Shown here: piece by piece, positions 3,573 to 36,633 of the stretch
Layout: every line of letters starts with the position of its first letter
How positions within the stretch are numbered: the stretch's first letter is position 1
Source of the DNA: Streptococcus sp. oral taxon 431
Lineage (GTDB): Bacteria > Bacillota > Bacilli > Lactobacillales > Streptococcaceae
DNA: 64,000 nt
Reading direction: 5' to 3'
NCBI RefSeq assembly: GCF_001553685.1
Contig: NZ_CP014264.1
Coordinates: forward strand, 1,062,001 to 1,126,000
Notes under the pieces: generated by a model
What the model was told of the DNA's origin: nothing
Databases searched by the model: none
Seen by the model: only the letters and a program-made list of their open reading frames with translations
Program-made: the position numbers and the translations under genes

Positions 3573-3576
3573 GAAA

Positions 3577-6045: not shown

Positions 6046-6050
6046 TACTA

Positions 6051-6455: not shown

Positions 6456-6499
6456 TTTAAGGTTTCTTTAAGGTTTCTTTAAGGTTTCTATACTATTCT
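6456..6499 (+). promoter_or_regulatory. CiaR-type operator/promoter (three TTTAAG repeats) of the lic operon
   Basis: TTTAAG occurs at 6456-6461, 6467-6472 and 6478-6483, each separated by the identical spacer GTTTC. The established CiaR binding site is two TTTAAG copies 5 bases apart at the -35 position of the activated promoter, and the lic operon is a known member of the pneumococcal CiaR regulon. The last copy is followed after 10 bases by TATTCT (6494-6499), a possible -10. Three copies instead of two offer two overlapping binding sites. Confidence 0.8.
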
Positions 6500-6650
6500 G
6501 AAGAACTCTATATTAATAGAATTGATTAGATCTTGATAGGAGAAATGAGAAAATCATTTGTATTTTATAAAAGAAAGTTCACTAGGAAGAAATAATGTTC
6601 AGATTAAGGTTTAAAAAGAGCGTTTTCTAGGCATAAAGTCTTTGTATTTC

Positions 6651-6680
6651 TTTCAAGATAGAGCCAGATTGTGATATAAT
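6651..6680 (+). promoter_or_regulatory. Second, constitutive-type promoter of tarI
   Basis: TATAAT at 6675-6680 with TG one base upstream (TGaTATAAT) and TTTCAA at 6651-6656 with an 18-base spacer. A start near 6687 would give a short leader to the tarI ATG at 6726, which is preceded by AAGGAG. Confidence 0.75.
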
Positions 6681-6725
6681 AGTTAACAATAAGTTTTTTT
6701 TAGAATGAACTAAAGGAGTATAAAA

Positions 6726-7433
6726 ATGATCTACGCTGGAATTTTAGCGGGTGGCACTGGCACACGCATGGGGATCAGTAATTTGCCTAAACAATTTCTT
6801 GAGTTGGGAGATCGCCCAATCTTAATTCACACTATTGAGAAATTTGTTTTGGAACCAAGTATTGAGCGAATTGTAGTTGGAGTTCACGGGGACTGGGTGA
6901 CACACGCAGAAGATTTAGTTGAAAAATTCCTTCCACTCCATAAAGATCGTATCATTATCACCAAAGGTGGTGCAGATCGAAATTCTAGTATTGAAAAGAT
7001 CATCGAAGCCATTGATGCTTACCGTCCAATCGCAGAAGATGATATCGTGGTCACTCATGACTCTGTTCGTCCTTTTATCACACTTCGAATGATTCAAGAC
7101 AACATTGAACTGGCTAAAAATCATGATGCTGTCGATACCGTGGTTGAAGCAGTCGATACCATTGTAGAGAGTACAAACGGACAATTCATCACAGATATTC
7201 CAAACCGTGCCCATCTCTATCAAGGACAAACTCCACAAACCTTCCGTTGCAAGGACTTTATAGATCTCTATGGTTCTTTATCAGCAGAAGAAAAAGAAAT
7301 TTTGACAGATGCATGTAAAATCTTTGTCATTAAGGGAAAAGATGTAGCCTTGGCTAAGGGTGAATACTCTAACCTTAAAATTACAACAGTTACAGACTTG
7401 AAGATTGCTAAAAGCATGATTGAGAAAGACTAA
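6726..7433 (+). CDS. tarI: CTP:ribitol-5-phosphate cytidylyltransferase TarI
   Basis: 235 residues of the IspD/TarI cytidylyltransferase family: the nucleotide-binding N-terminus LAGGTGTRMG and the downstream PKQFLEL are visible, as is the substrate-side VTHDSVRPF. It joins CTP and D-ribitol-5-phosphate to CDP-ribitol for teichoic acid chains. IspD is the main sequence alternative, but the adjoining tarJ and lic genes settle the call. It is the first gene of a five-gene operon in the order known from S. pneumoniae (tarI-tarJ-licA-licB-licC). Confidence 0.94.
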   Translation: MIYAGILAGGTGTRMGISNLPKQFLELGDRPILIHTIEKFVLEPSIERIVVGVHGDWVTHAEDLVEKFLPLHKDRIIITKGGADRNSSIEKIIEAIDAYRPIAEDDIVVTHDSVRPFITLRMIQDNIELAKNHDAVDTVVEAVDTIVESTNGQFITDIPNRAHLYQGQTPQTFRCKDFIDLYGSLSAEEKEILTDACKIFVIKGKDVALAKGEYSNLKITTVTDLKIAKSMIEKD

Positions 7434-15088: not shown

Positions 15089-15092
15089 AAAG

Positions 15093-15119
15093 AAAGCATC
15101 AAAATTTTGATGCTTTTTT
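15093..15119 (+). terminator. Terminator after the unknown membrane protein gene
   Basis: Self-complementary AAAGCATCAAAATTTTGATG arm pair followed by a T run. Confidence 0.8.
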
Positions 15120-15193: not shown

Positions 15194-15248
15194 AAAAGAT
15201 AGGGTAAAATACTATTTTTCCAAAATCCGAACTTAAGGAGAAAATAAT

Positions 15249-18200
15249 ATGTTTTTTAGACGTCAGGAAGGACGATATAGAGAAACAGACCGAGTAACGA
15301 GGTATAAATTGATCAAGTCAGGGAAACACTGGCTTCGAGCATCTACCTCTCTTTTTGGTTTGTTCAAGGTTCTTCGTGGTGGTATTGATACAGCTCAAGT
15401 TACAACAGAAGTCGTTGAAGATCGTGTTTCAACATCCCTAACTGGGCTTGATATCCTCAAGGGGATAGCTGCTGCGGGAACCGTCATAGGTGGAGGGATT
15501 GCGACTCAATCTCATGTCTATGCCAATGAACAGACTGCTGTTGAAAAAGTAGTTGAAGGTAAGGAAGTTCTCGCTAATGCGGACCAAGCTACCTTGGGAA
15601 CAGTTGGTCAAGATGATCAAGAAACACCAACTTCAGATACAACTTCTCAGTCATTAAGTGAGAGTGAATCAGTATCAGCGAGTGAATCTGCATCTGTATC
15701 AGCAAGCACAAGTGCGTCTGAGTCAGCCTCAACAAGTGCATCTGTATCAGTAAGCACATCAGCTTCAGAGTCGGCAAGTACCTCTGCATCTGAGTCAGCC
15801 TCAACGAGCGCTTCGGCTTCGGCATCGACAAGTGCATCTAAGTCAGCGTCAACAAGTATCTCTGCTTCATCAACTGTAGCAGGATCACAAACAGCTACGA
15901 AAGAAACTGTAACCGAAGCTGGCAAAGAAACAAGCTCGCTAACTGATAAAGTAGGTGAATCATCAGAAACGGCATCGACAACTTTAGAGGGCAAGGTAAC
16001 CCTTAATACCCTAATCTCTAAAGTAGAGAAAGTTTCAGATTCAACTACCAACTTCTCGTCTTCTGCAACAGATCTTGTAGCCACAACTGCCGCTACAGAA
16101 GCAACTGCTAAGAAGGTCGAAGAAGATCGTAAGAAACTTGCTAAACTTTCAGCTGAGATGGGTGAGTATCTTGCAAAAGCTGCTGGTTTGCCAAATACCG
16201 ATTCAGCTATCACTAAGGTGAATGCTGCTGTAGTAGAGATTGAAAAAGCACTTGCAGATCCGACAGCTGATTTGACAGCAGTCGTGCAAAAGGCAACTTC
16301 GGCTCGCAATGCTATCGCTAATGTTGTTTTGAACGCGAATTCAGATCAGCTGAATAACCTTAATGGTCAAGCTAATTCTCAAAGCGATGATACTAGATCA
16401 ATAGATCCCCAAAATCAGTCTAAACTTGATTCTGAAAAAGAAATTTTAGACCAAAATCTGTCTGAAGCAGAAATTCTAAAAAAACTAGCAAGTGATTATG
16501 CAGCGTCAGTTACTAATGCTGATCAAAAAGCAGTTATTGAACAAGCTATTGCTAATGTTCAGAAGGAGATCACTGCAAGTACTGATTTGCTTAGTACAAA
16601 TGCCAGTCTCCAATCCTATCCTGAGCAACGCAAGCGTTTAGGAGATTCCATTGATCAGTTGATAGCTTCTATGAATGCTGCTGGTTTTTCTGGCAATACG
16701 ACTGTAAATGGTGCTCCTGCAATTAGTGCCAGTTTAAACATTGCTAAAGGTCAGACAAAAGTTTATATAGGTGCCGGTAAAGATTCAAATAATATCCCAA
16801 TTTACTATAAATTGACAGTATCAAATAATGGATCAAAACTGACCTTTGTTTATACAATTACTTATGATAATCCTAAAACGTCGACTGTAGAAAAGCCTTC
16901 ATCCTTGTCTTATGGATATTCTATCTATAATACAGGAAAAGCTTATCAAACTATGTTTACGCTAGGGAAGGGATTAGGAACACCTTCAAGTGTAACAAAC
17001 TACATTACGGATTCTAGCGGTAAGCAAGTTGCTAATCCTCAGTCAAATACTACCCCTACCTTTACTATTGGAACTGGGAATTATACATGGTCAGATGGGT
17101 ACCAAATGAATGGGTATCAGGCTAAGCAGGGGTATGGTTTAACATCAACTTGGACTGTACCGATTACTGGAACGGATACATCTTTTACCTTTACCCCTTA
17201 CGCTGGTAGAACTAATGTATCTGGAACGAACTTTTTCAATAGTGGAGTAAAAGTAGTTGAATCTGAATCTAGTACAACCAGTCAGTCGCTTTCACAATCC
17301 AAGTCACTCTCAGTAAGTGCTAGTCAAAGCGCTTCGGTGTCAGCCTCAACAAGTGCCTCAGCTTCAGCGTCGACTAGCGCATCTAAGTCAGCGTCAACGA
17401 GTGCCTCAGCCTCAGCATCGACCAGCGCATCTAAGTCAGCTTCAACGAGTGCCTCAGCTTCAGCCTCGACAAGTGCATCTAAGTCAGCGTCAACAAGTGC
17501 GTCTAAGTCAGCCTCGACAAGTGCATCTAAGTCAGCTTCAACGAGTGCCTCAGCTTCAGCCTCGACAAGTGCATCTAAGTCAGCCTCGACAAGTGCGTCT
17601 AAGTCAGCCTCGACAAGTGCATCTAAGTCAGCGTCAACAAGTGCGTCTAAGTCAGCCTCGACAAGTGCATCTAAGTCAGCCTCGACAAGTGCGTCTAAGT
17701 CAGCCTCGACAAGTGCATCTAAGTCAGCGTCAACAAGTGCGTCTAAGTCAGCCTCGACAAGTGCATCTAAGTCAGCCTCAACGAGTGCCTCAGCTTCAGC
17801 CTCGACAAGTGCATCTAAGTCAGCCTCAACGAGTGCCTCAGCTTCAGCCTCGACAAGTGCATCTAAGTCAGCCTCGACAAGTGCATCTAAGTCAGCGTCA
17901 ACAAGTGCGTCTAAGTCAGCCTCGACAAGTGCATCTAAGTCAGCCTCGACAAGTGCGTCTAAGTCAGCCTCGACAAGTGCATCTAAGTCAGCGTCAACAA
18001 GTGCATCTAAGTCAGCCTCAACGAGTGCCTCAGCTTCAGCCTCGACAAGTGCATCTAAGTCAGCCTCAACGAGTGCCTCAGCTTCAGCCTCGACAAGTGC
18101 ATCTAAGTCAGCATCAACAAGTGCCTCAGCTTCAGCCTCGACAAGTGCGTCTAAGTCAGCGTCAACGAGCGCCTCAGCTTCAGCATCGACCAGCGCATCT

Positions 18201-21200
18201 AAGTCAGCGTCAACGAGCGCCTCAGCTTCAGCCTCGACAAGTGCATCTAAGTCAGCGTCAACAAGTGCGTCTAAGTCAGCAAGCACATCAGCTTCTGAAT
18301 CAGCAAGCACAAGCGCGTCAGAATCAGCGTCAACCAGTGCAAGCCAGTCAGCAAGCACATCGGCATCAGAATCAGCATCAACAAGTGCGTCAGAGTCGGC
18401 AAGTACAAGTGCTAGTCAATCAGCAAGCACATCGGCCTCAGAGTCAGCGTCAACCAGTGCGAGCCAATCAGCAAGCACAAGCGCGTCAGAATCAGCGTCA
18501 ACCAGTGCGAGCCAATCAGCAAGCACATCGGCTTCTGAATCAGCATCAACAAGTGCTAGTCAATCAGCAAGCACATCGGCATCAGAGTCAGCGTCAACAA
18601 GTGCGAGCCAATCAGCAAGCACAAGCGCTTCTGAGTCAGCAAGTACAAGTGCAAGCCAATCAGCAAGCACATCGGCTTCAGAATCAGCATCAACAAGTGC
18701 GTCAGAGTCAGCAAGCACATCGGCTTCTGAATCAGCATCAACAAGTGCTAGTCAATCAGCAAGCACAAGCGCATCAGAATCAGCAAGCACATCAGCCTCT
18801 GAGTCAGCATCAACATCAGCTTCTGAATCAGCATCAACAAGTGCTAGTCAATCAGCAAGCACATCGGCTTCAGAATCAGCATCAACAAGTGCGTCAGAGT
18901 CAGCAAGCACATCGGCTTCTGAATCAGCATCAACAAGCGCCTCTGAATCAGCAAGCACAAGCGCTTCTGAGTCAGCAAGTACAAGTGCAAGCCAATCAGC
19001 AAGCACATCGGCTTCTGAATCAGCATCAACAAGTGCGTCAGAATCAGCAAGCACATCAGCCTCTGAGTCTGCATCAACAAGTGCTTCAGAATCAGCAAGC
19101 ATATCGGCTTCTGAATCAGCGTCAACAAGTGCGTCAGAGTCAGCAAGCATATCAGCTTCTGAGTCAGCATCAACAAGTGCGTCAGAGTCAGCAAGCACAT
19201 CGGCTTCTGAATCAGCATCAACAAGTGCGTCAGAGTCAGCATCAACATCAGCTTCTGAATCAGCAAGTACATCAGCTTCAGAGTCAGCGTCAACAAGTGC
19301 GTCAGAATCAGCAAGCACATCGGCTTCAGAATCAGCATCAACAAGTGCGTCAGAGTCAGCGTCAACAAGTGCATCAGAATCAGCAAGCACATCAGCTTCT
19401 GAATCAGCATCAACAAGCGCCTCTGAATCAGCAAGTACATCAGCTTCTGAATCAGCATCAACAAGCGCCTCTGAATCAGCAAGTACATCAGCTTCTGAGT
19501 CAGCGTCAACAAGTGCGTCAGAGTCTGCATCAACATCAGCTTCTGAGTCAGCGTCAACAAGTGCATCAGAGTCAGCAAGCACATCGGCTTCTGAATCAGC
19601 ATCAACAAGCGCATCAGAATCAGCAAGCACATCAGCTTCTGAATCAGCATCAACAAGCGCCTCTGAATCAGCATCAACAAGCGCATCAGAATCAGCAAGC
19701 ACATCGGCTTCTGAATCAGCATCAACATCAGCTTCTGAGTCAGCATCAACAAGTGCGTCAGAATCAGCAAGCACATCGGCTTCTGAATCAGCATCAACAA
19801 GCGCATCAGAGTCAGCATCAACATCAGCTTCTGAATCAGCAAGCACATCGGCTTCTGAATCAGCATCAACAAGTGCGAGCCAGTCAGCAAGCACAAGTGC
19901 CTCAGAATCAGCAAGCACATCAGCTTCTGAGTCAGCGTCAACCAGTGCAAGCCAATCAGCAAGCACAAGTGCGTCAGAGTCTGCATCAACATCAGCTTCA
20001 GAGTCAGCATCAACAAGCGCCTCTGAATCAGCAAGTACATCGGCTTCTGAATCAGCATCAACAAGTGCTTCAGAGTCAGCAAGCACAAGTGCCTCAGAAT
20101 CAGCAAGCACATCGGCTTCTGAATCAGCATCAACAAGTGCTTCAGAGTCAGCAAGCACATCGGCTTCTGAATCAGCATCAACAAGTGCGTCAGAATCAGC
20201 AAGCACAAGCGCATCAGAGTCTGCATCAACATCAGCTTCTGAATCAGCATCAACAAGTGCGTCAGAGTCAGCAAGCACATCGGCTTCTGAATCAGCATCA
20301 ACAAGTGCCTCAGAATCAGCAAGCACATCAGCCTCTGAGTCAGCATCAACAAGTGCGTCAGAGTCTGCATCAACATCGGCTTCTGAATCAGCATCAACAT
20401 CAGCTTCTGAGTCAGCGTCAACAAGTGCGTCAGAGTCAGCAAGCACAAGTGCCTCAGAATCAGCATCAACGTCTGCATCTGAGTCAGCATCAACATCAGC
20501 TTCTGAATCAGCATCAACAAGCGCATCAGAATCAGCAAGCACATCGGCTTCTGAATCAGCATCAACATCAGCTTCTGAGTCAGCATCAACAAGTGCGTCA
20601 GAATCAGCAAGCACATCGGCTTCTGAATCAGCAAGCACATCGGCTTCTGAATCAGCATCAACAAGTGCAAGCCAATCAGCAAGCACATCAGCCTCTGAGT
20701 CGGCATCAACAAGTGCGTCAGAGTCAGCATCAACAAGCGCATCTGAATCAGCAAGCACAAGCGCATCTGAGTCAGCATCAACATCAGCTTCTGAATCAGC
20801 AAGCACATCGGCTTCTGAATCAGCGTCAACAAGTGCTTCAGAGTCAGCAAGCACAAGTGCGTCAGAATCTGCATCAATGTCAGCCTCTGAATCAGCAAGC
20901 ACATCGGCTTCTGAATCAGCGTCAACAAGTGCGTCAGAGTCAGCAAGCACATCGGCTTCTGAATCAGCATCAACAAGTGCGTCAGAATCAGCAAGCACAT
21001 CAGCTTCTGAATCAGCATCAACAAGTGCGTCAGAGTCAGCAAGCACATCGGCTTCTGAATCAGCATCAACGTCTGCATCTGAGTCTGCATCAACATCAGC
21101 TTCTGAATCAGCATCAACAAGCGCCTCAGAATCAGCAAGCACATCGGCTTCTGAATCAGCATCAACATCAGCTTCTGAGTCAGCATCAACAAGTGCCTCA

Positions 21201-24200
21201 GAATCAGCAAGCACATCAGCCTCTGAGTCAGCATCAACAAGTGCGTCAGAGTCTGCATCAACATCGGCTTCTGAATCAGCATCAACAAGCGCCTCTGAGT
21301 CAGCATCAACCAGTGCTTCAGAGTCAGCAAGCACATCAGCTTCTGAATCAGCATCAACAAGTGCGTCAGAATCAGCGTCAACAAGCGCATCAGAGTCTGC
21401 ATCAACGTCAGCCTCTGAGTCAGCATCAACAAGTGCATCAGAGTCAGCAAGCACAAGCGCATCAACATCAGCTTCTGAATCAGCAAGCACATCGGCTTCT
21501 GAATCAGCGTCAACAAGTGCGTCAGAGTCAGCAAGCACATCAGCTTCTGAGTCTGCATCAACAAGTGCGTCAGAGTCAGCAAGCACATCGGCTTCTGAAT
21601 CAGCATCAACAAGTGCTTCAGAGTCAGCAAGTACAAGTGCGTCAGAATCTGCATCAACGTCAGCCTCTGAGTCAGCATCAACAAGCGCCTCTGAATCAGC
21701 AAGCACATCGGCTTCTGAATCAGCGTCAACAAGTGCGTCAGAGTCAGCAAGCACATCGGCTTCTGAATCAGCATCAACAAGTGCTTCAGAGTCAGCAAGC
21801 ACATCGGCTTCTGAATCAGCATCAACAAGTGCGTCAGAGTCAGCAAGCACAAGTGCATCAGAATCAGCAAGCACATCAGCTTCAGAATCAGCAAGCACAT
21901 CAGCCTCAGAGTCAGCATCAACAAGTGCGTCAGAGTCAGCATCAACATCAGCTTCTGAATCAGCATCAACAAGTGCGTCAGAGTCAGCATCAACAAGCGC
22001 CTCTGAATCAGCAAGTACATCGGCTTCTGAATCAGCATCAACAAGTGCTTCAGAGTCAGCAAGTACAAGTGCCTCAGAATCAGCAAGCACATCGGCTTCT
22101 GAATCAGCATCAACCAGTGCTTCAGAGTCAGCAAGTACAAGCGCATCAGAATCAGCAAGCACATCGGCTTCTGAATCAGCATCAACAAGTGCATCAGAGT
22201 CAGCAAGCACATCGGCTTCTGAATCAGCATCAACAAGTGCGTCAGAGTCAGCAAGCACATCGGCTTCTGAATCAGCAAGCACAAGTGCGTCAGAGTCTGC
22301 ATCAACATCAGCTTCTGAATCAGCATCAACAAGTGCGTCAGAGTCAGCATCAACAAGTGCATCTGAGTCAGCAAGCACAAGCGCATCAGAATCAGCAAGC
22401 ACATCGGCTTCTGAATCAGCGTCAACAAGTGCGTCAGAGTCAGCAAGCACAAGTGCGTCAGAGTCAGCAAGCACATCGGCTTCTGAATCAGCATCAACCA
22501 GTGCGTCAGAGTCTGCATCAACATCAGCTTCTGAATCAGCATCAACAAGCGCCTCTGAATCAGCAAGCACATCGGCTTCTGAATCAGCATCAACAAGTGC
22601 GTCAGAGTCTGCATCAACAAGCGCATCAGAATCAGCAAGCACATCAGCTTCTGAGTCAGCATCAACAAGTGCATCTGAGTCAGCAAGTACAAGTGCATCA
22701 GAATCAGCAAGCACATCGGCTTCTGAATCAGCGTCAACAAGTGCGTCAGAGTCTGCATCAACAAGTGCATCTGAGTCAGCATCAACAAGCGCATCAGAAT
22801 CAGCAAGCACATCGGCTTCTGAATCAGCGTCAACAAGTGCGTCAGAATCAGCAAGCACAAGTGCGTCAGAATCAGCAAGCACATCGGCTTCTGAATCAGC
22901 ATCAACAAGTGCGTCAGAATCAGCAAGCACATCAGCCTCTGAGTCAGCATCAACAAGTGCGTCAGAGTCTGCAAGCACATCGGCTTCTGAATCAGCGTCA
23001 ACAAGTGCGTCAGAGTCAGCAAGCACAAGTGCGTCAGAGTCAGCAAGCACATCGGCTTCTGAATCAGCATCAACCAGTGCGTCAGAGTCTGCATCAACAT
23101 CAGCTTCTGAATCAGCATCAACAAGCGCCTCTGAATCAGCAAGCACAAGCGCATCAGAATCAGCATCAACGTCTGCATCAGAGTCAGCAAGCACATCGGC
23201 TTCTGAATCAGCATCAACAAGTGCGTCAGAGTCTGCATCAACAAGCGCATCAGAATCAGCAAGCACATCAGCTTCTGAGTCAGCATCAACAAGTGCATCT
23301 GAGTCAGCAAGCACAAGCGCATCAGAATCAGCAAGCACATCGGCTTCTGAATCAGCGTCAACAAGTGCGTCAGAGTCAGCAAGCACAAGTGCGTCAGAGT
23401 CAGCAAGCACATCGGCTTCTGAATCAGCATCAACCAGTGCGTCAGAGTCTGCATCAACATCAGCTTCTGAATCAGCATCAACAAGCGCCTCTGAATCAGC
23501 AAGCACAAGCGCATCAGAATCAGCATCAACGTCTGCATCAGAGTCAGCAAGCACATCGGCTTCTGAATCAGCATCAACAAGTGCGTCAGAGTCTGCATCA
23601 ACAAGCGCATCAGAATCAGCAAGCACATCAGCTTCTGAGTCAGCATCAACAAGTGCATCTGAGTCAGCAAGCACAAGCGCATCAGAATCAGCAAGCACAT
23701 CGGCTTCTGAATCAGCGTCAACAAGTGCGTCAGAGTCAGCAAGCACATCGGCTTCTGAATCAGCATCAACAAGTGCGTCAGAGTCTGCATCAACATCAGC
23801 TTCTGAATCAGCATCAACAAGCGCCTCTGAATCAGCAAGCACATCGGCTTCTGAATCAGCGTCAACAAGCGCGTCAGAGTCTGCATCAACATCGGCTTCT
23901 GAATCAGCATCAACAAGCGCCTCTGAATCAGCAAGCACATCAGCCTCTGAGTCAGCATCAACAAGTGCGTCAGAGTCAGCATCAACAAGTGCATCAGAAT
24001 CAGCAAGCACATCGGCTTCTGAATCAGCGTCAACAAGTGCGTCAGAGTCAGCAAGCACATCAGCTTCTGAGTCAGCATCAACCAGTGCGTCAGAGTCAGC
24101 AAGCACATCGGCTTCTGAATCAGCATCAACAAGTGCGTCAGAGTCTGCATCAACATCAGCTTCTGAATCAGCATCAACAAGCGCCTCTGAATCAGCAAGC

Positions 24201-27200
24201 ACAAGCGCATCAGAATCAGCAAGCACATCAGCCTCTGAGTCAGCAAGCACAAGTGCATCAGAGTCAGCAAGCACATCGGCTTCTGAATCAGCATCAACAA
24301 GTGCGTCAGAGTCAGCAAGCACATCGGCTTCTGAATCAGCGTCAACAAGCGCATCAGAGTCAGCAAGCACATCGGCTTCTGAATCAGCATCAACAAGTGC
24401 GTCAGAGTCAGCATCAACAAGCGCATCAGAATCAGCAAGCACATCGGCTTCTGAATCAGCGTCAACAAGTGCGTCAGAGTCAGCAAGCACATCGGCTTCT
24501 GAATCAGCGTCAACAAGTGCGTCAGAATCAGCAAGCACATCGGCTTCTGAGTCAGCGTCAACAAGTGCATCAGAGTCAGCAAGCACATCGGCTTCTGAAT
24601 CAGCGTCAACAAGTGTGTCAGAGTCTGCAAGCACATCGGCTTCTGAATCAGCATCAACAAGCGCCTCTGAATCAGCAAGTACATCAGCTTCTGAGTCAGC
24701 GTCAACAAGTGCGTCAGAGTCAGCAAGCAAAAGCGCTTCTGAATCAGCATCAACAAGTGCGTCAGAATCAGCAAGCACAAGCGCATCAGAGTCAGCATCA
24801 ACATTAGCTTCTGAATCAGCAAGCACATCAGCTTCTGAGTCAGCGTCAACAAGTGCATCAGAGTCAGCAAGCACAAGCGCATCAGAATCAGCATCAACGT
24901 CTGCATCAGAGTCAGCAAGCACATCGGCTTCAGAATCAGCATCAACAAGCGCGTCTGAGTCTGCATCAACGTCAGCCTCTGAGTCAGCGTCAACAAGTGC
25001 GTCAGAGTCAGCAAGCAAAAGCGCTTCTGAATCAGCATCAACAAGTGCGTCAGAATCAGCAAGCACAAGCGCATCAGAGTCAGCATCAACATTAGCTTCT
25101 GAATCAGCAAGCACATCAGCTTCTGAGTCAGCGTCAACAAGTGCATCAGAGTCAGCAAGCACAAGCGCATCAGAATCAGCATCAACGTCTGCATCAGAGT
25201 CAGCAAGCACATCGGCTTCAGAATCAGCATCAACAAGCGCGTCTGAGTCTGCATCAACGTCAGCCTCTGAGTCAGCATCAACAAGTGCGTCAGAATCAGC
25301 AAGCACAAGCGCATCAGAATCAGCATCAACAAGTGCATCTGAGTCAGCCTCAACGTCAGCTTCTGAGTCAGCAAGTACAAGTGCGAGTCAATCAGCAAGC
25401 ACAAGCGCATCAGAGTCAGCATCAACATCAGCTTCTGAATCGGCATCAACAAGTGCGTCAGAGTCAGCGTCAACATCAGCATCTGAATCAGCCTCAACGT
25501 CAGCTTCTGAGTCTGCATCAACAAGTGCGTCAGAATCAGCAAGCACAAGCGCATCAGAATCAGCATCAACAAGTGCATCTGAGTCAGCCTCAACGTCTGC
25601 ATCAGAATCAGCCAGCACATCAGCTTCTGAGTCAGCGTCAACAAGTGCGTCAGAGTCTGCATCAACATCAGCTTCAGAATCAGCCAGCACATCAGCATCT
25701 GAATCTGCAAGCACAAGCGCCTCTGAGTCAGCATCAACGTCAGCTTCTGAGTCAGCAAGTACAAGTGCGAGTCAATCAGCAAGCACAAGCGCATCAGAGT
25801 CAGCATCAACATCAGCTTCTGAATCGGCATCAACAAGTGCGTCAGAGTCAGCGTCAACATCAGCATCTGAATCAGCCTCAACGTCAGCTTCTGAGTCTGC
25901 ATCAACAAGTGCGTCAGAATCAGCAAGCACAAGTGCGTCAGAATCAGCAAGCACAAGTGCGTCAGAGTCAGCGTCAACCAGCGCTTCTGAATCAGCCTCA
26001 ACGTCAGCTTCTGAGTCAGCATCAACAAGTGCGTCAGAATCAGCAAGCACAAGCGCATCAGAGTCAGCGTCAACCAGCGCTTCTGAATCAGCAAGCACAA
26101 GCGCCTCTGAATCAGCAAGCACAAGTGCCTCAGAATCAGCATCAACAAGCGCATCAGAGTCAGCATCAACAAGTGCGTCAGAATCAGCAAGCACAAGCGC
26201 ATCAGAGTCAGCAAGTACAAGTGCATCAGAATCAGCAAGCACATCGGCTTCTGAATCAGCAAGTACATCAGCTTCTGAGTCAGCGTCAACCAGTGCGTCA
26301 GAGTCAGCAAGCACAAGCGCTTCTGAATCAGCGTCAACCAGTGCGTCAGAATCAGCAAGCACAAGCGCATCAGAGTCTGCATCAACATTAGCTTCTGAAT
26401 CAGCAAGCACATCAGCTTCTGAGTCAGCGTCAACAAGTGCATCAGAGTCAGCAAGCACAAGCGCATCAGAATCAGCATCAACGTCTGCATCAGAGTCAGC
26501 AAGCACATCGGCTTCAGAATCAGCATCAACAAGCGCGTCTGAGTCTGCATCAACGTCAGCCTCTGAGTCAGCATCAACAAGTGCGTCAGAATCAGCAAGC
26601 ACAAGCGCATCAGAATCAGCATCAACAAGTGCATCTGAGTCAGCCTCAACGTCTGCATCAGAATCAGCCAGCACATCAGCTTCTGAGTCAGCGTCAACAA
26701 GTGCGTCAGAGTCTGCATCAACATCAGCTTCAGAATCAGCCAGCACATCAGCATCTGAATCTGCAAGCACAAGCGCCTCTGAGTCAGCATCAACGTCAGC
26801 TTCTGAGTCAGCAAGTACAAGTGCGAGTCAATCAGCAAGCACAAGCGCATCAGAGTCAGCATCAACATCAGCTTCTGAATCGGCATCAACAAGTGCGTCA
26901 GAGTCAGCGTCAACATCAGCATCTGAATCAGCCTCAACGTCAGCTTCTGAGTCTGCATCAACAAGTGCGTCAGAATCAGCAAGCACAAGTGCGTCAGAAT
27001 CAGCAAGCACAAGTGCGTCAGAGTCAGCGTCAACCAGCGCTTCTGAATCAGCCTCAACGTCAGCTTCTGAGTCAGCATCAACAAGTGCGTCAGAATCAGC
27101 AAGCACAAGCGCATCAGAGTCAGCGTCAACCAGCGCTTCTGAATCAGCAAGCACAAGCGCCTCTGAATCAGCAAGCACAAGTGCCTCAGAATCAGCATCA

Positions 27201-30200
27201 ACAAGCGCATCAGAGTCAGCATCAACATCAGCTTCTGAATCGGCATCAACAAGTGCGTCAGAGTCAGCGTCAACATCAGCATCTGAATCAGCCTCAACGT
27301 CAGCTTCTGAGTCTGCATCAACAAGTGCGTCAGAATCAGCAAGCACAAGTGCGTCAGAATCAGCAAGCACAAGTGCGTCAGAGTCAGCGTCAACCAGCGC
27401 TTCTGAATCAGCCTCAACGTCAGCTTCTGAGTCAGCATCAACAAGTGCGTCAGAATCAGCAAGCACAAGCGCATCAGAGTCAGCGTCAACCAGCGCTTCT
27501 GAATCAGCAAGCACAAGCGCCTCTGAATCAGCAAGCACAAGTGCCTCAGAATCAGCATCAACAAGCGCATCAGAGTCAGCATCAACAAGTGCGTCAGAAT
27601 CAGCAAGCACAAGCGCATCAGAGTCAGCAAGTACAAGTGCATCAGAATCAGCAAGCACATCGGCTTCTGAATCAGCAAGTACATCAGCTTCTGAGTCAGC
27701 GTCAACCAGTGCGTCAGAGTCAGCAAGCACAAGCGCTTCTGAATCAGCGTCAACCAGTGCGTCAGAATCAGCAAGCACAAGCGCATCAGAGTCTGCATCA
27801 ACATTAGCTTCTGAATCAGCCTCAACGTCTGCATCAGAGTCAGCAAGCACATCGGCTTCAGAATCAGCATCAACAAGCGCGTCAGAGTCAGCATCAACAA
27901 GTGCATCAGAGTCAGCAAGCACATCAGCATCTGAGTCTGCATCAACGTCAGCCTCTGAGTCAGCATCAACAAGTGCGTCAGAATCAGCAAGCACAAGCGC
28001 ATCTGAATCAGCATCAACAAGTGCATCTGAGTCAGCCTCAACGTCTGCATCAGAATCAGCAAGCACATCAGCTTCTGAGTCAGCGTCAACAAGTGCGTCA
28101 GAGTCTGCATCAACATCAGCTTCAGAATCAGCCAGCACATCAGCATCTGAATCTGCAAGCACAAGCGCCTCTGAGTCAGCATCAACGTCAGCTTCTGAGT
28201 CAGCAAGTACAAGTGCGAGTCAATCAGCAAGCACAAGCGCATCAGAGTCTGCATCAACATCAGCTTCTGAATCAGCATCAACAAGCGCATCAGAGTCTGC
28301 ATCAACAAGTGCGTCAGAGTCAGCGTCAACATCAGCATCTGAATCAGCCTCAACGTCAGCTTCTGAGTCAGCATCAACAAGTGCGTCAGAATCAGCCAGC
28401 ACATCGGCTTCAGAATCAGCAAGTACAAGTGCGAGCCAGTCAGCAAGCACAAGTGCGTCAGAGTCAGCAAGCACATCAGCATCAGAGTCAGCGTCAACCA
28501 GCGCTTCTGAATCAGCCTCAACGTCAGCTTCTGAATCAGCATCAACAAGTGCGTCAGAGTCAGCAAGCACATCGGCTTCTGAATCAGCAAGCACAAGCGC
28601 ATCAGAATCAGCATCAACGTCTGCATCAGAGTCAGCAAGCACATCGGCTTCTGAATCAGCATCAACAAGTGCGTCAGAGTCTGCATCAACAAGCGCATCA
28701 GAATCAGCAAGCACATCAGCTTCTGAGTCAGCATCAACAAGTGCATCTGAGTCAGCAAGCACAAGCGCATCAGAATCAGCAAGCACATCGGCTTCTGAAT
28801 CAGCGTCAACAAGTGCGTCAGAGTCAGCAAGCACAAGTGCGTCAGAGTCAGCAAGCACATCGGCTTCTGAATCAGCATCAACCAGTGCGTCAGAGTCTGC
28901 ATCAACATCAGCTTCTGAATCAGCATCAACAAGCGCCTCTGAATCAGCAAGCACATCGGCTTCTGAATCAGCGTCAACAAGTGCGTCAGAGTCAGCAAGC
29001 ACATCGGCTTCTGAATCAGCATCAACAAGTGCGTCAGAGTCTGCATCAACAAGCGCATCAGAATCAGCAAGCACATCAGCTTCTGAGTCAGCATCAACAA
29101 GTGCATCTGAGTCAGCAAGCACAAGCGCATCAGAATCAGCAAGCACATCGGCTTCTGAATCAGCGTCAACAAGTGCGTCAGAGTCTGCATCAACAAGTGC
29201 ATCTGAGTCAGCATCAACAAGCGCATCAGAATCAGCAAGCACATCGGCTTCTGAATCAGCGTCAACAAGTGCGTCAGAATCAGCAAGCACAAGTGCGTCA
29301 GAATCAGCAAGCACATCGGCTTCTGAATCAGCATCAACAAGTGCGTCAGAATCAGCAAGCACATCAGCCTCTGAGTCAGCATCAACAAGTGCGTCAGAGT
29401 CTGCAAGCACATCGGCTTCTGAATCAGCGTCAACAAGTGCGTCAGAGTCAGCAAGCACAAGTGCGTCAGAGTCAGCAAGCACATCGGCTTCTGAATCAGC
29501 ATCAACCAGTGCGTCAGAGTCTGCATCAACATCAGCTTCTGAATCAGCATCAACAAGCGCCTCTGAATCAGCAAGCACAAGCGCATCAGAATCAGCATCA
29601 ACGTCTGCATCAGAGTCAGCAAGCACATCGGCTTCTGAATCAGCATCAACAAGTGCGTCAGAGTCTGCATCAACAAGCGCATCAGAATCAGCAAGCACAT
29701 CAGCTTCTGAGTCAGCATCAACAAGTGCATCTGAGTCAGCAAGCACAAGCGCATCAGAATCAGCAAGCACATCGGCTTCTGAATCAGCGTCAACAAGTGC
29801 GTCAGAGTCAGCAAGCACAAGTGCGTCAGAGTCAGCAAGCACATCGGCTTCTGAATCAGCATCAACCAGTGCGTCAGAGTCTGCATCAACATCAGCTTCT
29901 GAATCAGCATCAACAAGCGCCTCTGAATCAGCAAGCACAAGCGCATCAGAATCAGCATCAACGTCTGCATCAGAGTCAGCAAGCACATCGGCTTCTGAAT
30001 CAGCATCAACAAGTGCGTCAGAGTCTGCATCAACAAGCGCATCAGAATCAGCAAGCACATCAGCTTCTGAGTCAGCATCAACAAGTGCATCTGAGTCAGC
30101 AAGCACAAGCGCATCAGAATCAGCAAGCACATCGGCTTCTGAATCAGCGTCAACAAGTGCGTCAGAGTCAGCAAGCACATCGGCTTCTGAATCAGCATCA

Positions 30201-33200
30201 ACAAGTGCGTCAGAGTCTGCATCAACATCAGCTTCTGAATCAGCATCAACAAGCGCCTCTGAATCAGCAAGCACATCGGCTTCTGAATCAGCGTCAACAA
30301 GCGCGTCAGAGTCTGCATCAACATCGGCTTCTGAATCAGCATCAACAAGCGCCTCTGAATCAGCAAGCACATCAGCCTCTGAGTCAGCATCAACAAGTGC
30401 GTCAGAGTCAGCATCAACAAGTGCATCAGAATCAGCAAGCACATCGGCTTCTGAATCAGCGTCAACAAGTGCGTCAGAGTCAGCAAGCACATCAGCTTCT
30501 GAGTCAGCATCAACCAGTGCGTCAGAGTCAGCAAGCACATCGGCTTCTGAATCAGCATCAACAAGTGCGTCAGAGTCTGCATCAACATCAGCTTCTGAAT
30601 CAGCATCAACAAGCGCCTCTGAATCAGCAAGCACAAGCGCATCAGAATCAGCAAGCACATCAGCCTCTGAGTCAGCAAGCACAAGTGCATCAGAGTCAGC
30701 AAGCACATCGGCTTCTGAATCAGCATCAACAAGTGCGTCAGAGTCAGCAAGCACATCGGCTTCTGAATCAGCGTCAACAAGCGCATCAGAGTCAGCAAGC
30801 ACATCGGCTTCTGAATCAGCATCAACAAGTGCGTCAGAGTCAGCATCAACAAGCGCATCAGAATCAGCAAGCACATCGGCTTCTGAATCAGCGTCAACAA
30901 GTGCGTCAGAGTCAGCAAGCACATCGGCTTCTGAATCAGCGTCAACAAGTGCGTCAGAATCAGCAAGCACATCGGCTTCTGAGTCAGCGTCAACAAGTGC
31001 ATCAGAGTCAGCAAGCACATCGGCTTCTGAATCAGCGTCAACAAGTGTGTCAGAGTCTGCAAGCACATCGGCTTCTGAATCAGCATCAACAAGCGCCTCT
31101 GAATCAGCAAGTACATCAGCTTCTGAGTCAGCGTCAACAAGTGCGTCAGAGTCAGCAAGCAAAAGCGCTTCTGAATCAGCATCAACAAGTGCGTCAGAAT
31201 CAGCAAGCACAAGCGCATCAGAGTCAGCATCAACATTAGCTTCTGAATCAGCAAGCACATCAGCTTCTGAGTCAGCGTCAACAAGTGCATCAGAGTCAGC
31301 AAGCACAAGCGCATCAGAATCAGCATCAACGTCTGCATCAGAGTCAGCAAGCACATCGGCTTCAGAATCAGCATCAACAAGCGCGTCTGAGTCTGCATCA
31401 ACGTCAGCCTCTGAGTCAGCGTCAACAAGTGCGTCAGAGTCAGCAAGCAAAAGCGCTTCTGAATCAGCATCAACAAGTGCGTCAGAATCAGCAAGCACAA
31501 GCGCATCAGAGTCAGCATCAACATTAGCTTCTGAATCAGCAAGCACATCAGCTTCTGAGTCAGCGTCAACAAGTGCATCAGAGTCAGCAAGCACAAGCGC
31601 ATCAGAATCAGCATCAACGTCTGCATCAGAGTCAGCAAGCACATCGGCTTCAGAATCAGCATCAACAAGCGCGTCTGAGTCTGCATCAACGTCAGCCTCT
31701 GAGTCAGCATCAACAAGTGCGTCAGAATCAGCAAGCACAAGCGCATCAGAATCAGCATCAACAAGTGCATCTGAGTCAGCCTCAACGTCAGCTTCTGAGT
31801 CAGCAAGTACAAGTGCGAGTCAATCAGCAAGCACAAGCGCATCAGAGTCAGCATCAACATCAGCTTCTGAATCGGCATCAACAAGTGCGTCAGAGTCAGC
31901 GTCAACATCAGCATCTGAATCAGCCTCAACGTCAGCTTCTGAGTCTGCATCAACAAGTGCGTCAGAATCAGCAAGCACAAGCGCATCAGAATCAGCATCA
32001 ACAAGTGCATCTGAGTCAGCCTCAACGTCTGCATCAGAATCAGCCAGCACATCAGCTTCTGAGTCAGCGTCAACAAGTGCGTCAGAGTCTGCATCAACAT
32101 CAGCTTCAGAATCAGCCAGCACATCAGCATCTGAATCTGCAAGCACAAGCGCCTCTGAGTCAGCATCAACGTCAGCTTCTGAGTCAGCAAGTACAAGTGC
32201 GAGTCAATCAGCAAGCACAAGCGCATCAGAGTCAGCATCAACATCAGCTTCTGAATCGGCATCAACAAGTGCGTCAGAGTCAGCGTCAACATCAGCATCT
32301 GAATCAGCCTCAACGTCAGCTTCTGAGTCTGCATCAACAAGTGCGTCAGAATCAGCAAGCACAAGTGCGTCAGAATCAGCAAGCACAAGTGCGTCAGAGT
32401 CAGCGTCAACCAGCGCTTCTGAATCAGCCTCAACGTCAGCTTCTGAGTCAGCATCAACAAGTGCGTCAGAATCAGCAAGCACAAGCGCATCAGAGTCAGC
32501 GTCAACCAGCGCTTCTGAATCAGCAAGCACAAGCGCCTCTGAATCAGCAAGCACAAGTGCCTCAGAATCAGCATCAACAAGCGCATCAGAGTCAGCATCA
32601 ACAAGTGCGTCAGAATCAGCAAGCACAAGCGCATCAGAGTCAGCAAGTACAAGTGCATCAGAATCAGCAAGCACATCGGCTTCTGAATCAGCAAGTACAT
32701 CAGCTTCTGAGTCAGCGTCAACCAGTGCGTCAGAGTCAGCAAGCACAAGCGCTTCTGAATCAGCGTCAACCAGTGCGTCAGAATCAGCAAGCACAAGCGC
32801 ATCAGAGTCTGCATCAACATTAGCTTCTGAATCAGCAAGCACATCAGCTTCTGAGTCAGCGTCAACAAGTGCATCAGAGTCAGCAAGCACAAGCGCATCA
32901 GAATCAGCATCAACGTCTGCATCAGAGTCAGCAAGCACATCGGCTTCAGAATCAGCATCAACAAGCGCGTCTGAGTCTGCATCAACGTCAGCCTCTGAGT
33001 CAGCATCAACAAGTGCGTCAGAATCAGCAAGCACAAGCGCATCAGAATCAGCATCAACAAGTGCATCTGAGTCAGCCTCAACGTCTGCATCAGAATCAGC
33101 CAGCACATCAGCTTCTGAGTCAGCGTCAACAAGTGCGTCAGAGTCTGCATCAACATCAGCTTCAGAATCAGCCAGCACATCAGCATCTGAATCTGCAAGC

Positions 33201-36200
33201 ACAAGCGCCTCTGAGTCAGCATCAACGTCAGCTTCTGAGTCAGCAAGTACAAGTGCGAGTCAATCAGCAAGCACAAGCGCATCAGAGTCAGCATCAACAT
33301 CAGCTTCTGAATCGGCATCAACAAGTGCGTCAGAGTCAGCGTCAACATCAGCATCTGAATCAGCCTCAACGTCAGCTTCTGAGTCTGCATCAACAAGTGC
33401 GTCAGAATCAGCAAGCACAAGTGCGTCAGAATCAGCAAGCACAAGTGCGTCAGAGTCAGCGTCAACCAGCGCTTCTGAATCAGCCTCAACGTCAGCTTCT
33501 GAGTCAGCATCAACAAGTGCGTCAGAATCAGCAAGCACAAGCGCATCAGAGTCAGCGTCAACCAGCGCTTCTGAATCAGCAAGCACAAGCGCCTCTGAAT
33601 CAGCAAGCACAAGTGCCTCAGAATCAGCATCAACAAGCGCATCAGAGTCAGCATCAACATCAGCTTCTGAATCGGCATCAACAAGTGCGTCAGAGTCAGC
33701 GTCAACATCAGCATCTGAATCAGCCTCAACGTCAGCTTCTGAGTCTGCATCAACAAGTGCGTCAGAATCAGCAAGCACAAGTGCGTCAGAATCAGCAAGC
33801 ACAAGTGCGTCAGAGTCAGCGTCAACCAGCGCTTCTGAATCAGCCTCAACGTCAGCTTCTGAGTCAGCATCAACAAGTGCGTCAGAATCAGCAAGCACAA
33901 GCGCATCAGAGTCAGCGTCAACCAGCGCTTCTGAATCAGCAAGCACAAGCGCCTCTGAATCAGCAAGCACAAGTGCCTCAGAATCAGCATCAACAAGCGC
34001 ATCAGAGTCAGCATCAACAAGTGCGTCAGAATCAGCAAGCACAAGCGCATCAGAGTCAGCAAGTACAAGTGCATCAGAATCAGCAAGCACATCGGCTTCT
34101 GAATCAGCAAGTACATCAGCTTCTGAGTCAGCGTCAACCAGTGCGTCAGAGTCAGCAAGCACAAGCGCTTCTGAATCAGCGTCAACCAGTGCGTCAGAAT
34201 CAGCAAGCACAAGCGCATCAGAGTCTGCATCAACATTAGCTTCTGAATCAGCAAGCACATCAGCTTCTGAGTCAGCGTCAACAAGTGCATCAGAGTCAGC
34301 AAGCACAAGCGCATCAGAATCAGCCTCAACGTCTGCATCAGAGTCAGCAAGCACATCGGCTTCAGAATCAGCATCAACAAGCGCGTCAGAGTCAGCATCA
34401 ACAAGTGCATCAGAGTCAGCAAGCACATCAGCATCTGAGTCTGCATCAACGTCAGCCTCTGAGTCAGCATCAACAAGTGCGTCAGAATCAGCAAGCACAA
34501 GCGCATCTGAATCAGCATCAACAAGTGCATCTGAGTCAGCCTCAACGTCTGCATCAGAATCAGCAAGCACATCAGCTTCTGAGTCAGCGTCAACAAGTGC
34601 GTCAGAGTCTGCATCAACATCAGCTTCAGAATCAGCCAGCACATCAGCATCTGAATCTGCAAGCACAAGCGCCTCTGAGTCAGCATCAACGTCAGCTTCT
34701 GAGTCAGCAAGTACAAGTGCGAGTCAATCAGCAAGCACAAGCGCATCAGAGTCTGCATCAACATCAGCTTCTGAATCAGCATCAACAAGCGCATCAGAGT
34801 CTGCATCAACAAGTGCGTCAGAGTCAGCGTCAACATCAGCATCTGAATCAGCCTCAACGTCAGCTTCTGAGTCAGCATCAACAAGTGCGTCAGAATCAGC
34901 CAGCACATCGGCTTCAGAATCAGCAAGTACAAGTGCGAGCCAGTCAGCAAGCACAAGTGCGTCAGAGTCAGCAAGCACATCAGCATCAGAGTCAGCGTCA
35001 ACCAGCGCTTCTGAATCAGCCTCAACGTCAGCTTCTGAGTCTGCATCAACATCAGCTTCTGAATCAGCATCAACAAGCGCCTCTGAATCAGCAAGTACAT
35101 CAGCTTCAGAGTCAGCGTCAACAAGTGCGTCAGAGTCTGCATCAACAAGTGCGTCAGAGTCAGCAAGTACAAGCGCATCAGAATCAGCAAGCACATCGGC
35201 TTCAGAATCAGCATCAACATCAGCTTCTGAATCAGCATCAACAAGTGCGTCAGAATCAGCAAGTACATCAGCTTCTGAGTCAGCGTCAACAAGTGCTTCA
35301 GAGTCTGCATCAACAAGTGCTTCAGAATCACCAAGCACATCGGCTTCAGAATCAGCATCAACAAGTGCCTCTGAATCAGCAAGTACATCAGCTTCTGAGT
35401 CAGCGTCAACAAGCGCATCAGAATCAGCGTCAACAAGCGCCTCTGAATCAGCATCAACAAGTGCATCAGAATCTGCAAGTACAAGCGCATCAGAATCAGC
35501 AAGCACATCGGCTTCAGAATCAGCGTCAACAAGTGCGTCAGAGTCTGCAAGCACATCAGCTTCTGAATCAGCATCAACAAGCGCCTCTGAATCAGCAAGC
35601 ACAAGCGCATCAGAGTCTGCATCAACATCAGCTTCTGAATCAGCATCAACAAGTGCGTCAGAGTCAGCAAGCACATCGGCTTCAGAATCAGCATCAACAA
35701 GTGCCTCTGAATCAGCAAGTACATCGGCTTCTGAATCAGCAAGCACATCAGCTTCTGAGTCAGCGTCAACCAGTGCAAGCCAATCAGCAAGCACAAGTGC
35801 GTCAGAGTCTGTATCAACATCAGCTTCTGAGTCAGCATCAACAAGCGCCTCTGAATCAGCAAGCACAAGCGCATCAGAGTCTGCATCAACATCAGCTTCT
35901 GAATCAGCATCAACAAGTGCAAGCCAATCAGCAAGCACATCGGCTTCAGAGTCAGCGTCAACAAGTGCGTCAGAGTCAGCAAGCACATCGGCTTCAGAAT
36001 CAGCATCAACAAGTGCGTCAGAGTCTGCATCAACATCGGCTTCTGAGTCAGCATCAACAAGTGCGAGCCAATCAGCAAGCACATCGGCTTCAGAATCAGC
36101 ATCAACAAGTGCAAGCCAATCAGCAAGCACATCTGTTGTTACAAGTAAGGGAATGCCAGAAAGCTTGTCACTTGATAGCTTAGATATTGATAGTATTATT

Positions 36201-36563
36201 ACATCTGATTCAATTAGTACATCAGTATCACAATCACTATCATTATCAGCAAGTATTAGTCAATCAATGCCTCGTTCAACATCAGCAAGCACAAGCACCT
36301 CAACATCAATGCCTCATTCGGCATCAACAAGTGTAAGTGCTTCAACATCAGCGACTCATTCGACTTCAACGACTCATTCGACTTCAACGACTCATTCGAC
36401 TTCAACTAGTCAAGTTCTACAAACTGATACCACTAAGGCCCGTAAGCAATTACCAAATACAGGTGAAACTGCTTCAGCTACAAATGCTCTCCTTGGAGTT
36501 GTAGCAGGTCTAACTGGATTAGGATTAGTGGCTAAACGTCGTAAGCGTGATGATGAAGAATAA
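15249..36563 (+). CDS. Giant serine-rich repeat surface adhesin, LPxTG-anchored (7104 residues)
   Basis: A serine-rich repeat glycoprotein of the GspB/PsrP/Fap1 class. Order: long signal peptide (residues 1-92) with the KxYKxGKxW-type motif ([11 protein letters not shown]) and a hydrophobic glycine-rich segment ending SHVYA before N-E; short serine-rich region 1 (about 130-210); non-repeat region (about 211-669) with two helical stretches (278-366, 391-480) and a beta-rich domain (496-669) that is the probable ligand-binding part; serine-rich region 2 (about 690-6960) of roughly 780 octapeptides S-A-S-x-S-A-S-T; a degenerate serine/threonine stretch (6961-7060); sortase motif LPNTGE (7068-7073), hydrophobic helix and R/K-rich tail. 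Such proteins are O-glycosylated and exported by the accessory SecA2/SecY2 system; none of those genes is in the window. It is monocistronic. It recalls the giant MonX protein reported for S. mitis B6, from memory. The product is far longer than the 2000-5000 residues usual for the class. Confidence 0.93.
15636..15877 (+). repeat. Serine-rich region 1 coding repeat
   Basis: About 80 codons of S-x-S-A-S-x-S-A repeats between the signal peptide and the non-repeat region, with E, T, V and K at the variable position. Units are more diverged than in region 2. Confidence 0.85.
22350..28530 (+). repeat. Internal large duplication, copy 1
   Basis: Matches 28730-35035 at an offset of 6432 bases over most of its length (for example the V unit at 24614 and 31046, the K units at 24728/25016 and 31160/31448). 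It lacks 48 bases near 22560 and 72 bases near 27820 relative to copy 2, so the offset is 6384 at the left end and 6504 at the right end. Left border is approximate because all units look alike. Confidence 0.85.
28730..35035 (+). repeat. Internal large duplication, copy 2
   Basis: Second copy of the 22350-28530 segment. Reading base by base, the two copies are identical over long stretches with isolated differences (for instance two C/T changes at 22688 and 22694 against 29120 and 29126). The right border is sharp: identity ends at about 28528 and 35038, where the following bases differ (GAATCAGCATC against GAGTCTGCATC). Confidence 0.85.
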
Positions 36564-36602
36564 ATCTTCTAACGATTCTATTAGTTGATTAATCCGATCA
36601 AA

Positions 36603-36633
36603 AAACCTGAAAGATATAACTTTCAGGTTTTTT
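36603..36633 (+). terminator. Terminator after the giant adhesin gene
   Basis: 11-bp stem AAACCTGAAAG / CTTTCAGGTTT with T run, 40 bases after the stop. Confidence 0.88.

What the first reader, a model, noticed from the sequence alone, without database searches (positions are those of the whole stretch)
15249..36563. A single 7104-codon serine-rich adhesin gene fills a third of the window
The open frame is intact from a KxYKxGKxW-type signal peptide to an LPNTGE anchor. Its repeat region codes about 780 octapeptides with no frameshift or stop over 18.8 kb, which argues for selection or recent homogenisation. Known members of the class are mostly 2000-5000 residues. A giant protein (MonX) has been reported for S. 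mitis B6; this may be an allele or relative.
Basis: partly seen in the sequence, partly recalled or inferred. Interest (0 to 1): 0.75.

Follow-up and report, generated by a model that had tools for sequence, protein, structure and literature searches.

The report
Giant orphan serine-rich streptococcal adhesin
A mouth-type streptococcus carries an intact gene for an unusually long sticky surface protein of a known family; it sits far from its export machinery, its extreme length comes from one recent doubling of its stalk, and its tip resembles that of a well-studied pneumococcal adhesin in a fuller form.

Summary
In detail: one uninterrupted 7,104-codon frame at 15249-36563 with an accessory-Sec signal peptide, two serine-rich regions, a binding head and an LPNTGE anchor. 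It is a serine-rich repeat protein (SRRP), but not an allele of MonX. The genome's accessory-Sec/glycosylation island lies about 740 kb away and holds its own SRRP, interrupted in this assembly. The window gene is a second, unlinked SRRP at a variable site between ribF and deoR-nrdFE: 8 of 14 close genomes have an SRRP there, 2 show the site empty. Its first 200 nt are 99.5% identical to the genome's own island copy and 75-76% to two other genomes' copies at this site, which suggests gene conversion. The exceptional length rests on a near-exact tandem duplication of about 6.3 kb. Without one 6,432-bp period it would be 4,960 residues, within the published range; that is also where assembly error would hide. 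The head is a Fap1-NRalpha-like helical bundle plus a PsrP-type keratin-10/DNA-binding domain. The four rows named S. pneumoniae lack part of this helical module, in the region reported as PsrP's self-aggregation segment; I saw that link in no passage I read. New member of a known kind.

The parts
15090..15119 (+). intrinsic-terminator-like hairpin that separates the gene from the upstream ORF
   Evidence: pattern match only; the same hairpin was found on both strands; shuffles mean 0.0
15235..15240 (+). AAGGAG ribosome-binding-like site before ATG 15249; also where similarity to the island copy begins
15249..36563 (+). giant SRRP gene, 7,104 codons plus stop
15288..15407 (+). KxYKxGKxW signal peptide (residues 14-53); TIGR04224 aSec-adhesin N-terminal domain at residues 36-84
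15633..15887 (+). SRR1 (residues about 129-213)
15888..16376 (+). non-repeat segment shared with the island-linked SRRP of the same genome (the 91% nt match, 15235-16376, ends here)
16407..16679 (+). three-helix module like Fap1-NRalpha
   Evidence: AlphaFold model; Foldseek prob 1.00, TM 0.83-0.86 by target length, rmsd 1.3-1.5, but E only 0.016-0.055
16683..17267 (+). PsrP-type binding domain (residues 479-673), predicted pI 9.2
17268..36137 (+). SRR2 stalk, 6,290 residues: K/A-type units first, then mixed E/Q, then almost pure SASESAST
22341..28534 (+). first copy of the segmental duplication (6,194 bp)
28725..35038 (+). second copy (6,314 bp): 2 mismatches, +48 bp and +72 bp (2 and 3 units)
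36450..36563 (+). LPNTGE sortase signal, hydrophobic stretch, charged tail and stop
36600..36633 (+). terminator-like hairpin after the gene
   Evidence: pattern match only

Best explanation
The gene encodes a second, 'orphan' serine-rich repeat adhesin of a Streptococcus infantis-like mitis-group streptococcus. Inferred: it is made as a preprotein, glycosylated in the cytoplasm by GtfA/GtfB and exported by SecA2-SecY2-Asp acting in trans from the genome's accessory-Sec island, then anchored by sortase. Shown from sequence and model: the head has a Fap1-NRalpha-like helical bundle followed by a PsrP-type keratin-10/DNA-binding fold, carried on a 6,290-residue serine-rich stalk. Inferred: the stalk carries the head past capsule and other surface polymers; the basic head binds keratin and extracellular DNA, and the helical module mediates tip-to-tip aggregation. 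The stalk grows and shrinks by in-frame recombination between 24-bp units. Its present length is mainly one recent tandem duplication of about 268 units, while purifying selection holds the octapeptide. The locus is a variable SRRP site, and the gene's 5' end was probably copied from the island SRRP.
For: Family: TIGR04224 64.2 bits (cut-off 25), KxYKxGKxW, SRR1-head-SRR2-LPxTG order. Export in trans: SecY2, Asp1, Asp2, SecA2 and GtfA over NCBIfam cut-offs at 327-336 kb of the same contig. Head: PsrP 3zgh E 3.9e-73; model matches 3zgi/3zgh first (58-62% id, TM 0.87-0.89 by target) and Fap1-NRalpha 3rgu/2kub with prob 1.00; 42 of 69 residues identical over the reported KRT10-binding stretch 273-341, numbering approximate; pI 9.24 against 9.48 for the PsrP part. 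Duplication: 5,126 bp exact; copies differ by 2 mismatches and unit-sized gaps. Selection. Variable site: SRRP beside ribF in 8 of 14 close genomes, empty in G125 and G074. Gene conversion: first 200 nt 99.5% identical to own island copy, 75-76% to G216 and G172 copies at this site, while the anchor is nearest to DD18's copy at this site (169 of 175, own island 164 of 175). SecY2 over cut-off in 13 of 14 close genomes.
Against: No expression, glycosylation or binding data; export in trans is inferred. Asp3 was not tested and the ORF in gtfB's place was cut by the fetched stretch and not tested. The island's SRRP carries an in-frame stop in this assembly. No promoter reached the scan's consensus. 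The length rests on an exact multi-kilobase repeat; the two copies span 12.7 kb, so shorter reads could not verify it (inference). The NRalpha match is structural (Foldseek E 0.016-0.055, 23-24% identity; three unrelated chains have smaller E but prob 0.28-0.41); by sequence Fap1 reaches only E 0.05, below two designed repeat proteins at 3e-5 and 4e-4. The gene-conversion comparison uses only the 8 of 16 sequences in which my pattern found the start; DD18's own 5' end is masked.
Confidence: 0.82

Rival explanations
1. The 7,104-residue length is an assembly product: the about 6.3-kb block was duplicated by the assembler and the real gene is nearer 4,960 residues.
For: The copies are identical over 5,126 bp, far above the longest exact internal repeats in the 9 other SRRP genes measured: 428 bp in the island copy, 548 bp in G240, 461 in G224, 254 in G158, 68 in G182, 1,536 in G109, 809 in G099, 803 in G101, 239 in G183. 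Removing one 6,432-bp period gives 4,960 residues, close to the frames of G183 (4,938) and G240 (4,897).
Against: The genome is one contig; the copies differ by 2 mismatches and by whole-unit gaps of 48 and 72 bp, which a plain assembler duplication would not create (inference); exact in-frame duplications up to 1.5 kb also occur in other genomes held as one contig; another such genome has a 6,349-codon member.
Confidence: 0.2
2. It is an allele of MonX/PsrP, the island SRRP moved by rearrangement.
For: PsrP-type head and the island-type 5' end.
Against: The island is elsewhere with its own SRRP; S. infantis DD18 and other genomes have SRRPs at the same ribF site; the flanks match relatives that lack any SRRP there.
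Confidence: 0.05
3. The gene is unexpressed or drifting: an open frame without function.
For: No consensus promoter found.
Against: Strong excess of synonymous change, ribosome-binding-like site, flanking terminator-like hairpins, presence at one site in several genomes.
Confidence: 0.05

Closest known systems
PsrP of Streptococcus pneumoniae (4,776 aa in TIGR4; PDB 3zgh, 3zgi, 5jui)
   Same: Domain order, basic binding domain 58-62% identical by structure alignment, serine-rich octapeptide stalk.
   Different: Not in the accessory-Sec island; about 2,300 residues longer; retains a full helical module that the 4 rows named S. pneumoniae lack in part.
S. salivarius SRRPs (SrpB type)
   Same: A partial SRRP named from S. 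salivarius (P0020) matches the head, helical module included, 185 of 312 identical; SrpB's likeness to PsrP-BR is published (PMC6973325, passage).
   Different: Whether P0020 is SrpB itself was not tested; only a partial sequence was seen.
Fap1 of S. parasanguinis (NRalpha 2kub/3rgu)
   Same: Three-helix module ahead of a beta domain.
   Different: Fap1's beta domain is CnaA-type, to which PsrP's domain is only distantly related (passages).
MonX of S. mitis B6
   Same: Giant serine-rich LPxTG protein.
   Different: Island-linked, estimated about 4,200 aa. Of 4 published primers and one 70-mer, the best ungapped fits in the window were 21/25 (MonX-1r, near 16206; equally good in the island SRRP) and 49/70 (near 36480): related, not the same sequence.
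Giant1-5 of Apilactobacillus kunkeei
   Same: Surface proteins of 3,000-8,000 aa (PMC12863079, start of abstract and passages).
   Different: No accessory-Sec targeting domain; alanine-rich repeats; the authors suggest they are not orthologs of SRRPs.

Membership tests
Serine-rich repeat glycoprotein adhesin (SRRP) | Long accessory-Sec signal peptide | tested here: met
   PF19258, TIGR03715 and TIGR04224 over cut-offs
[quoted passage not shown]
   SRR1 129-213, SRR2 674-6963, head between
Serine-rich repeat glycoprotein adhesin (SRRP) | C-terminal LPxTG anchor | tested here: met
   LPNTGE at residue 7068
Serine-rich repeat glycoprotein adhesin (SRRP) | Accessory-Sec and glycosyltransferase genes in the genome | tested here: met
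   SecY2, Asp1, Asp2, SecA2, GtfA over cut-off; Asp3 and GtfB not tested
Serine-rich repeat glycoprotein adhesin (SRRP) | Glycosylated and exported by that system | not testable with these tools
   needs protein work
PsrP/MonX allele | Encoded in the accessory-Sec island | tested here: not met
   island at about 303-337 kb, window gene at about 1,077 kb of the same contig
PsrP/MonX allele | PsrP-type binding domain | tested here: met
   (PsrP); MonX head sequence not held
PsrP-type head | Binds keratin 10 and DNA | not testable with these tools
   only sequence, fold and charge compared
Fap1-NRalpha-like module | Three-helix bundle fold | tested here: met
   model helices 19-52, 56-81, 88-109; TM 0.83-0.86 to 3rgu/2kub by target length, prob 1.00
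Fap1-NRalpha-like module | Detectable sequence relationship to Fap1 | tested here: inconclusive
   phmmer E 0.05, below two designed repeat proteins

The most novel reading that the evidence does not exclude
This commensal-type protein shows the fuller form of the PsrP head. Pneumococcal PsrP lost, by in-frame deletion, one helix and neighbouring sequence of a Fap1-NRalpha-like tip module, so the disordered 'self-aggregation region' studied in PsrP is the remnant of a folded oligomerisation module that relatives keep. The ribF-deoR site is a second, island-independent SRRP site that exchanges ends with the island copy while each locus swaps heads and stalk lengths.
Probability: 0.5. Interest if true: 0.6.

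Novelty: new member of a known kind. Interest (0 to 1): 0.45.

Why it matters
It is the longest frame among the listed TIGR04224 matches in 284 Streptococcus species genomes (7,104 residues; next listed 6,349; list cut), above the 'over 5000' of a review (passage), and it shows how it got so long: in-frame segmental duplication under strong selection on the octapeptide. It separates the adhesin from its export island, so export in trans becomes testable by removing the island's secA2. And it links the aggregation segment of pneumococcal PsrP to the Fap1 tip module, which would join two lines of work.

Tried and rejected
Searching for full-length giant relatives in the 5.8-billion-protein set gave none at E <= 0.001 among 737 candidates scored; a shortened query scored on its 328-residue head region gave 79. 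The antisense 5,762-codon frame (18844-36132, minus) is taken as a by-product of the repeat's codon make-up; no separate test was made. The named-genome scan found one relative, S. infantis DD18 (records very near the window may be left out there). Assembly artefact: kept as the main rival. The MonX-allele reading: rejected. A capsule link (one TIGR01007 match at 1858354-1858965) is suggestive only; that model also rang in 14 of 14 controls, over cut-off in 5. A contour length of about 1.6 micrometres for SRR2 (6,290 residues at a recalled 0.25 nm per residue) is arithmetic, not a measurement. The first selection counts used a residue filter that favoured conserved peptides; I repeated them without it.

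Full report
OBSERVATION. The frame 15249-36563 (+) is open for 7,104 codons, with no N in the window. It begins with a KxYKxGKxW signal and the TIGR04224 accessory-Sec adhesin domain (64.2 bits, cut-off 25), and ends with LPNTGE, a hydrophobic stretch and a charged tail. Serine is 3,271 of 7,104 residues. SRR1 spans residues 129-213 and SRR2 674-6963, with the head between. A ribosome-binding-like AAGGAG precedes ATG 15249. Terminator-like hairpins lie at 15090-15119 and 36600-36633, so the gene is probably transcribed alone; no consensus promoter was found.

THE REPEAT. Cut into 782 octapeptides without any residue filter, the array has 185 distinct 24-mers but 14 peptides, in two registers half a unit apart. 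Non-synonymous/synonymous codon differences between distinct units are 0.053 (611 units, 105 distinct) and 0.154 (171 units, 80 distinct), against opportunity ratios of 2.65 and 2.63. Earlier filtered counts gave 0.109. Unit pairs are related, so I use this as an effect size only. Third codon positions vary; first and second hardly vary except where serine switches between TCN and AGY (filtered units). The array is held at the peptide level.

WHY IT IS SO LONG. The longest exact direct repeat is 5,126 bp (22695 and 29127, offset 6,432 bp = 268 units). Aligned, the copies 22341-28534 and 28725-35038 differ by 2 mismatches and by gaps of 48 and 72 bp, both multiples of 24. Removing one 6,432-bp period leaves 4,960 codons. 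I measured exact internal repeats in ten genes: this one, the island SRRP (428 bp), G240 (548), G224 (461), G158 (254) and G182 (68); G101 (803), G183 (239), G109 (1,536) and G099 (809). In three further fetched stretches (L079, L080, L084) the script did not find an SRRP frame. So in-frame duplication is ordinary and this scale is not. Whether both copies are real needs long reads.

HOW IT COMPARES IN LENGTH. Among TIGR04224 matches in 284 Streptococcus species genomes (139 with a match, 133 over the cut-off, 0 of 14 controls), this frame is the longest listed; next are 6,349 (G101), 4,938 (G183) and 4,897 (G240). The list was cut, so weaker matches were not seen, and many genomes are drafts in which such arrays break. 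G101's product differs in composition (serine 22%). In print I saw 970 to 'over 5000' (PMC7661464, passage) and 5,322 aa in S. oralis ATCC 35037 (PMC6722419, passage). I saw no longer SRRP in the listings (which asked for 'giant' with 'serine-rich repeat'); these cover open-licence text only.

WHERE IT SITS. The genome is one contig of 2,177,905 bp. Its accessory-Sec island runs from about 303 kb to at least 337 kb: an SRRP, four sugar- or glycosyltransferase-like genes, SecY2, Asp1, Asp2, SecA2, GtfA and an ORF in gtfB's usual place that was cut and not tested. The window gene is about 740 kb away. The island SRRP shares its first 1.1 kb (91% nt over 1,146 columns) and its anchor (94% over 176 bp) with the window gene; its head reads differently. 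It carries one in-frame stop within SRR2, with the same frame continuing to an LPNTGE anchor. A third KxYKxGKxW protein (2,413 aa, not serine-rich) is at 1911631-1918872.

THE SITE. I took as close the 14 genomes, own included, whose ribF product is at least 94% identical. A KxYKxGKxW signal lies 0.6-1.7 kb downstream of ribF in 7 (G000, G112, G172, G212, G216, G233, G267). The eighth, G068, is recognised by its PsrP-type head 2.4 kb from ribF; its coordinates are those of S. infantis DD18 (L013), where the same neighbours flank the gene. In G125 and G074 ribF and nrdF are 2.3 and 2.6 kb apart with no SRRP. G240 is rearranged, with no SRRP next to either ribF or nrdF in the stretches fetched. 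G171, G173 and G213 were not examined. G172's gene has only 1,538 codons and lies beside two ORFs that look by eye like insertion-sequence pieces; G233's has a stop. SecY2 is over cut-off in 13 of the 14; the exception, G074, has the empty site, but G125 has SecY2 and an empty site too. DD18 and the window match at 92-96% nt over flanking genes, so the host is S. infantis-like; its name was not determined.

GENE CONVERSION. In the first 200 nt the window gene is 99.5% identical to the island copy of its own genome, 80-82% to four copies elsewhere in G212, G213, G233 and G267 that I took as island type, and 75-76% to the ribF-site copies of G216 and G172 (8 of 16 sequences used, since my start pattern missed the rest). 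The similarity to the island copy begins at 15235, just before the start codon, whereas the DNA before it matches DD18's ribF site at 92.6%. DD18's own 5' end is masked, so its type is unknown. Over the last 175 nt of the gene the identity is 169 to DD18, 164 to the own island copy, 154 to G172 and 139 to G240 (ungapped). The likeliest reading is a copy of the 5' end from the island to the ribF site.

THE HEAD. Residues 479-673 match PsrP's KRT10-binding domain (3zgh, E 3.9e-73). The AlphaFold model (23 sequences, mean pLDDT 74, pTM 0.55) shows three helices and then this domain. Foldseek gives PsrP chains first (58-62% id, TM 0.87-0.89 by target) and Fap1-NRalpha chains with prob 1.00, TM 0.83-0.86, rmsd 1.3-1.5, but E only 0.016-0.055, among many unrelated chains of like E and low prob. 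Predicted pI is 9.24 (PsrP part 9.48), and 42 of 69 residues are identical over the published KRT10-binding stretch (41-43 by numbering chosen). Published for the relatives: PsrP binds KRT10 and DNA and self-aggregates (PMC3909270, PMC5007671, PMC2920850: passages; one of these papers disputes that residues 122-166 promote aggregation); Fap1-NRalpha directs pH-dependent adhesion and is modelled in tip-to-tip contact (PMC3601411, passages).

THE PNEUMOCOCCAL DIFFERENCE. I aligned P0001-P0063, 63 of the 79 relatives; the other 16 cover half or less of the query and were left out. 54 keep the helical module; the 4 named S. pneumoniae (P0050-P0053, partial) lack 28 residues that hold helix 2 and the stretch that forms the first part of helix 1; 5 S. 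epidermidis rows (P0058-P0061, P0063) have no such module. Outside those gaps the pneumococcal rows are close to the window protein. By parsimony these are deletions in the pneumococcal line; no tree was made. The remnant overlaps, by approximate numbering, the part of PsrP reported as its self-aggregation and disordered region, residues 122-166. I did not see this link in the passages read, and a search for PsrP together with NRalpha listed three papers; that is not proof that nobody has made it.

VERDICT. A real gene of a known kind but extreme: an SRRP of standard architecture, unlinked to its export island, of unusual length by a recent duplication that still needs long-read proof.

Noticed in passing
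G000 C1 303362-321263 (L008/L009): A second giant SRRP in the accessory-Sec island with a different head; one in-frame stop interrupts it in this assembly, roughly 60% along.
   Followed up: partly
window 18844-36132 (minus): Antisense open frame of 5,762 codons opposite SRR2; taken as a by-product of repeat codon usage.
   Followed up: no
L010, G000 C1 1911631-1918872 (minus): 2,413-aa KxYKxGKxW protein with MucBP-like repeats (name recalled) and a helical module like the window gene's, but not serine-rich.
   Followed up: partly
L011 and L012, G000 C1 1822621-1834236 and 472463-487001: Three very large surface-protein frames (3,871, 3,452 and over 1,159 aa) that share one N-terminal signal-like sequence.
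   Followed up: no
P0050-P0053 against the other rows: Four rows named S. pneumoniae lack part of the helical head module that 54 of 63 relatives keep.
   Followed up: partly
window 17268-36137: Serine codons at the same unit positions use both TCN and AGY boxes (11,458 of 42,213 synonymous codon differences between distinct filtered units), a natural test case for serine codon switching.
   Followed up: no
G101 C1 434700-454500 (L086): Another one-contig genome carries a 6,349-codon SRRP with a different repeat (STSASTSAVA-like), and a second SRRP frame of 4,278 codons about 14 kb upstream.
   Followed up: partly
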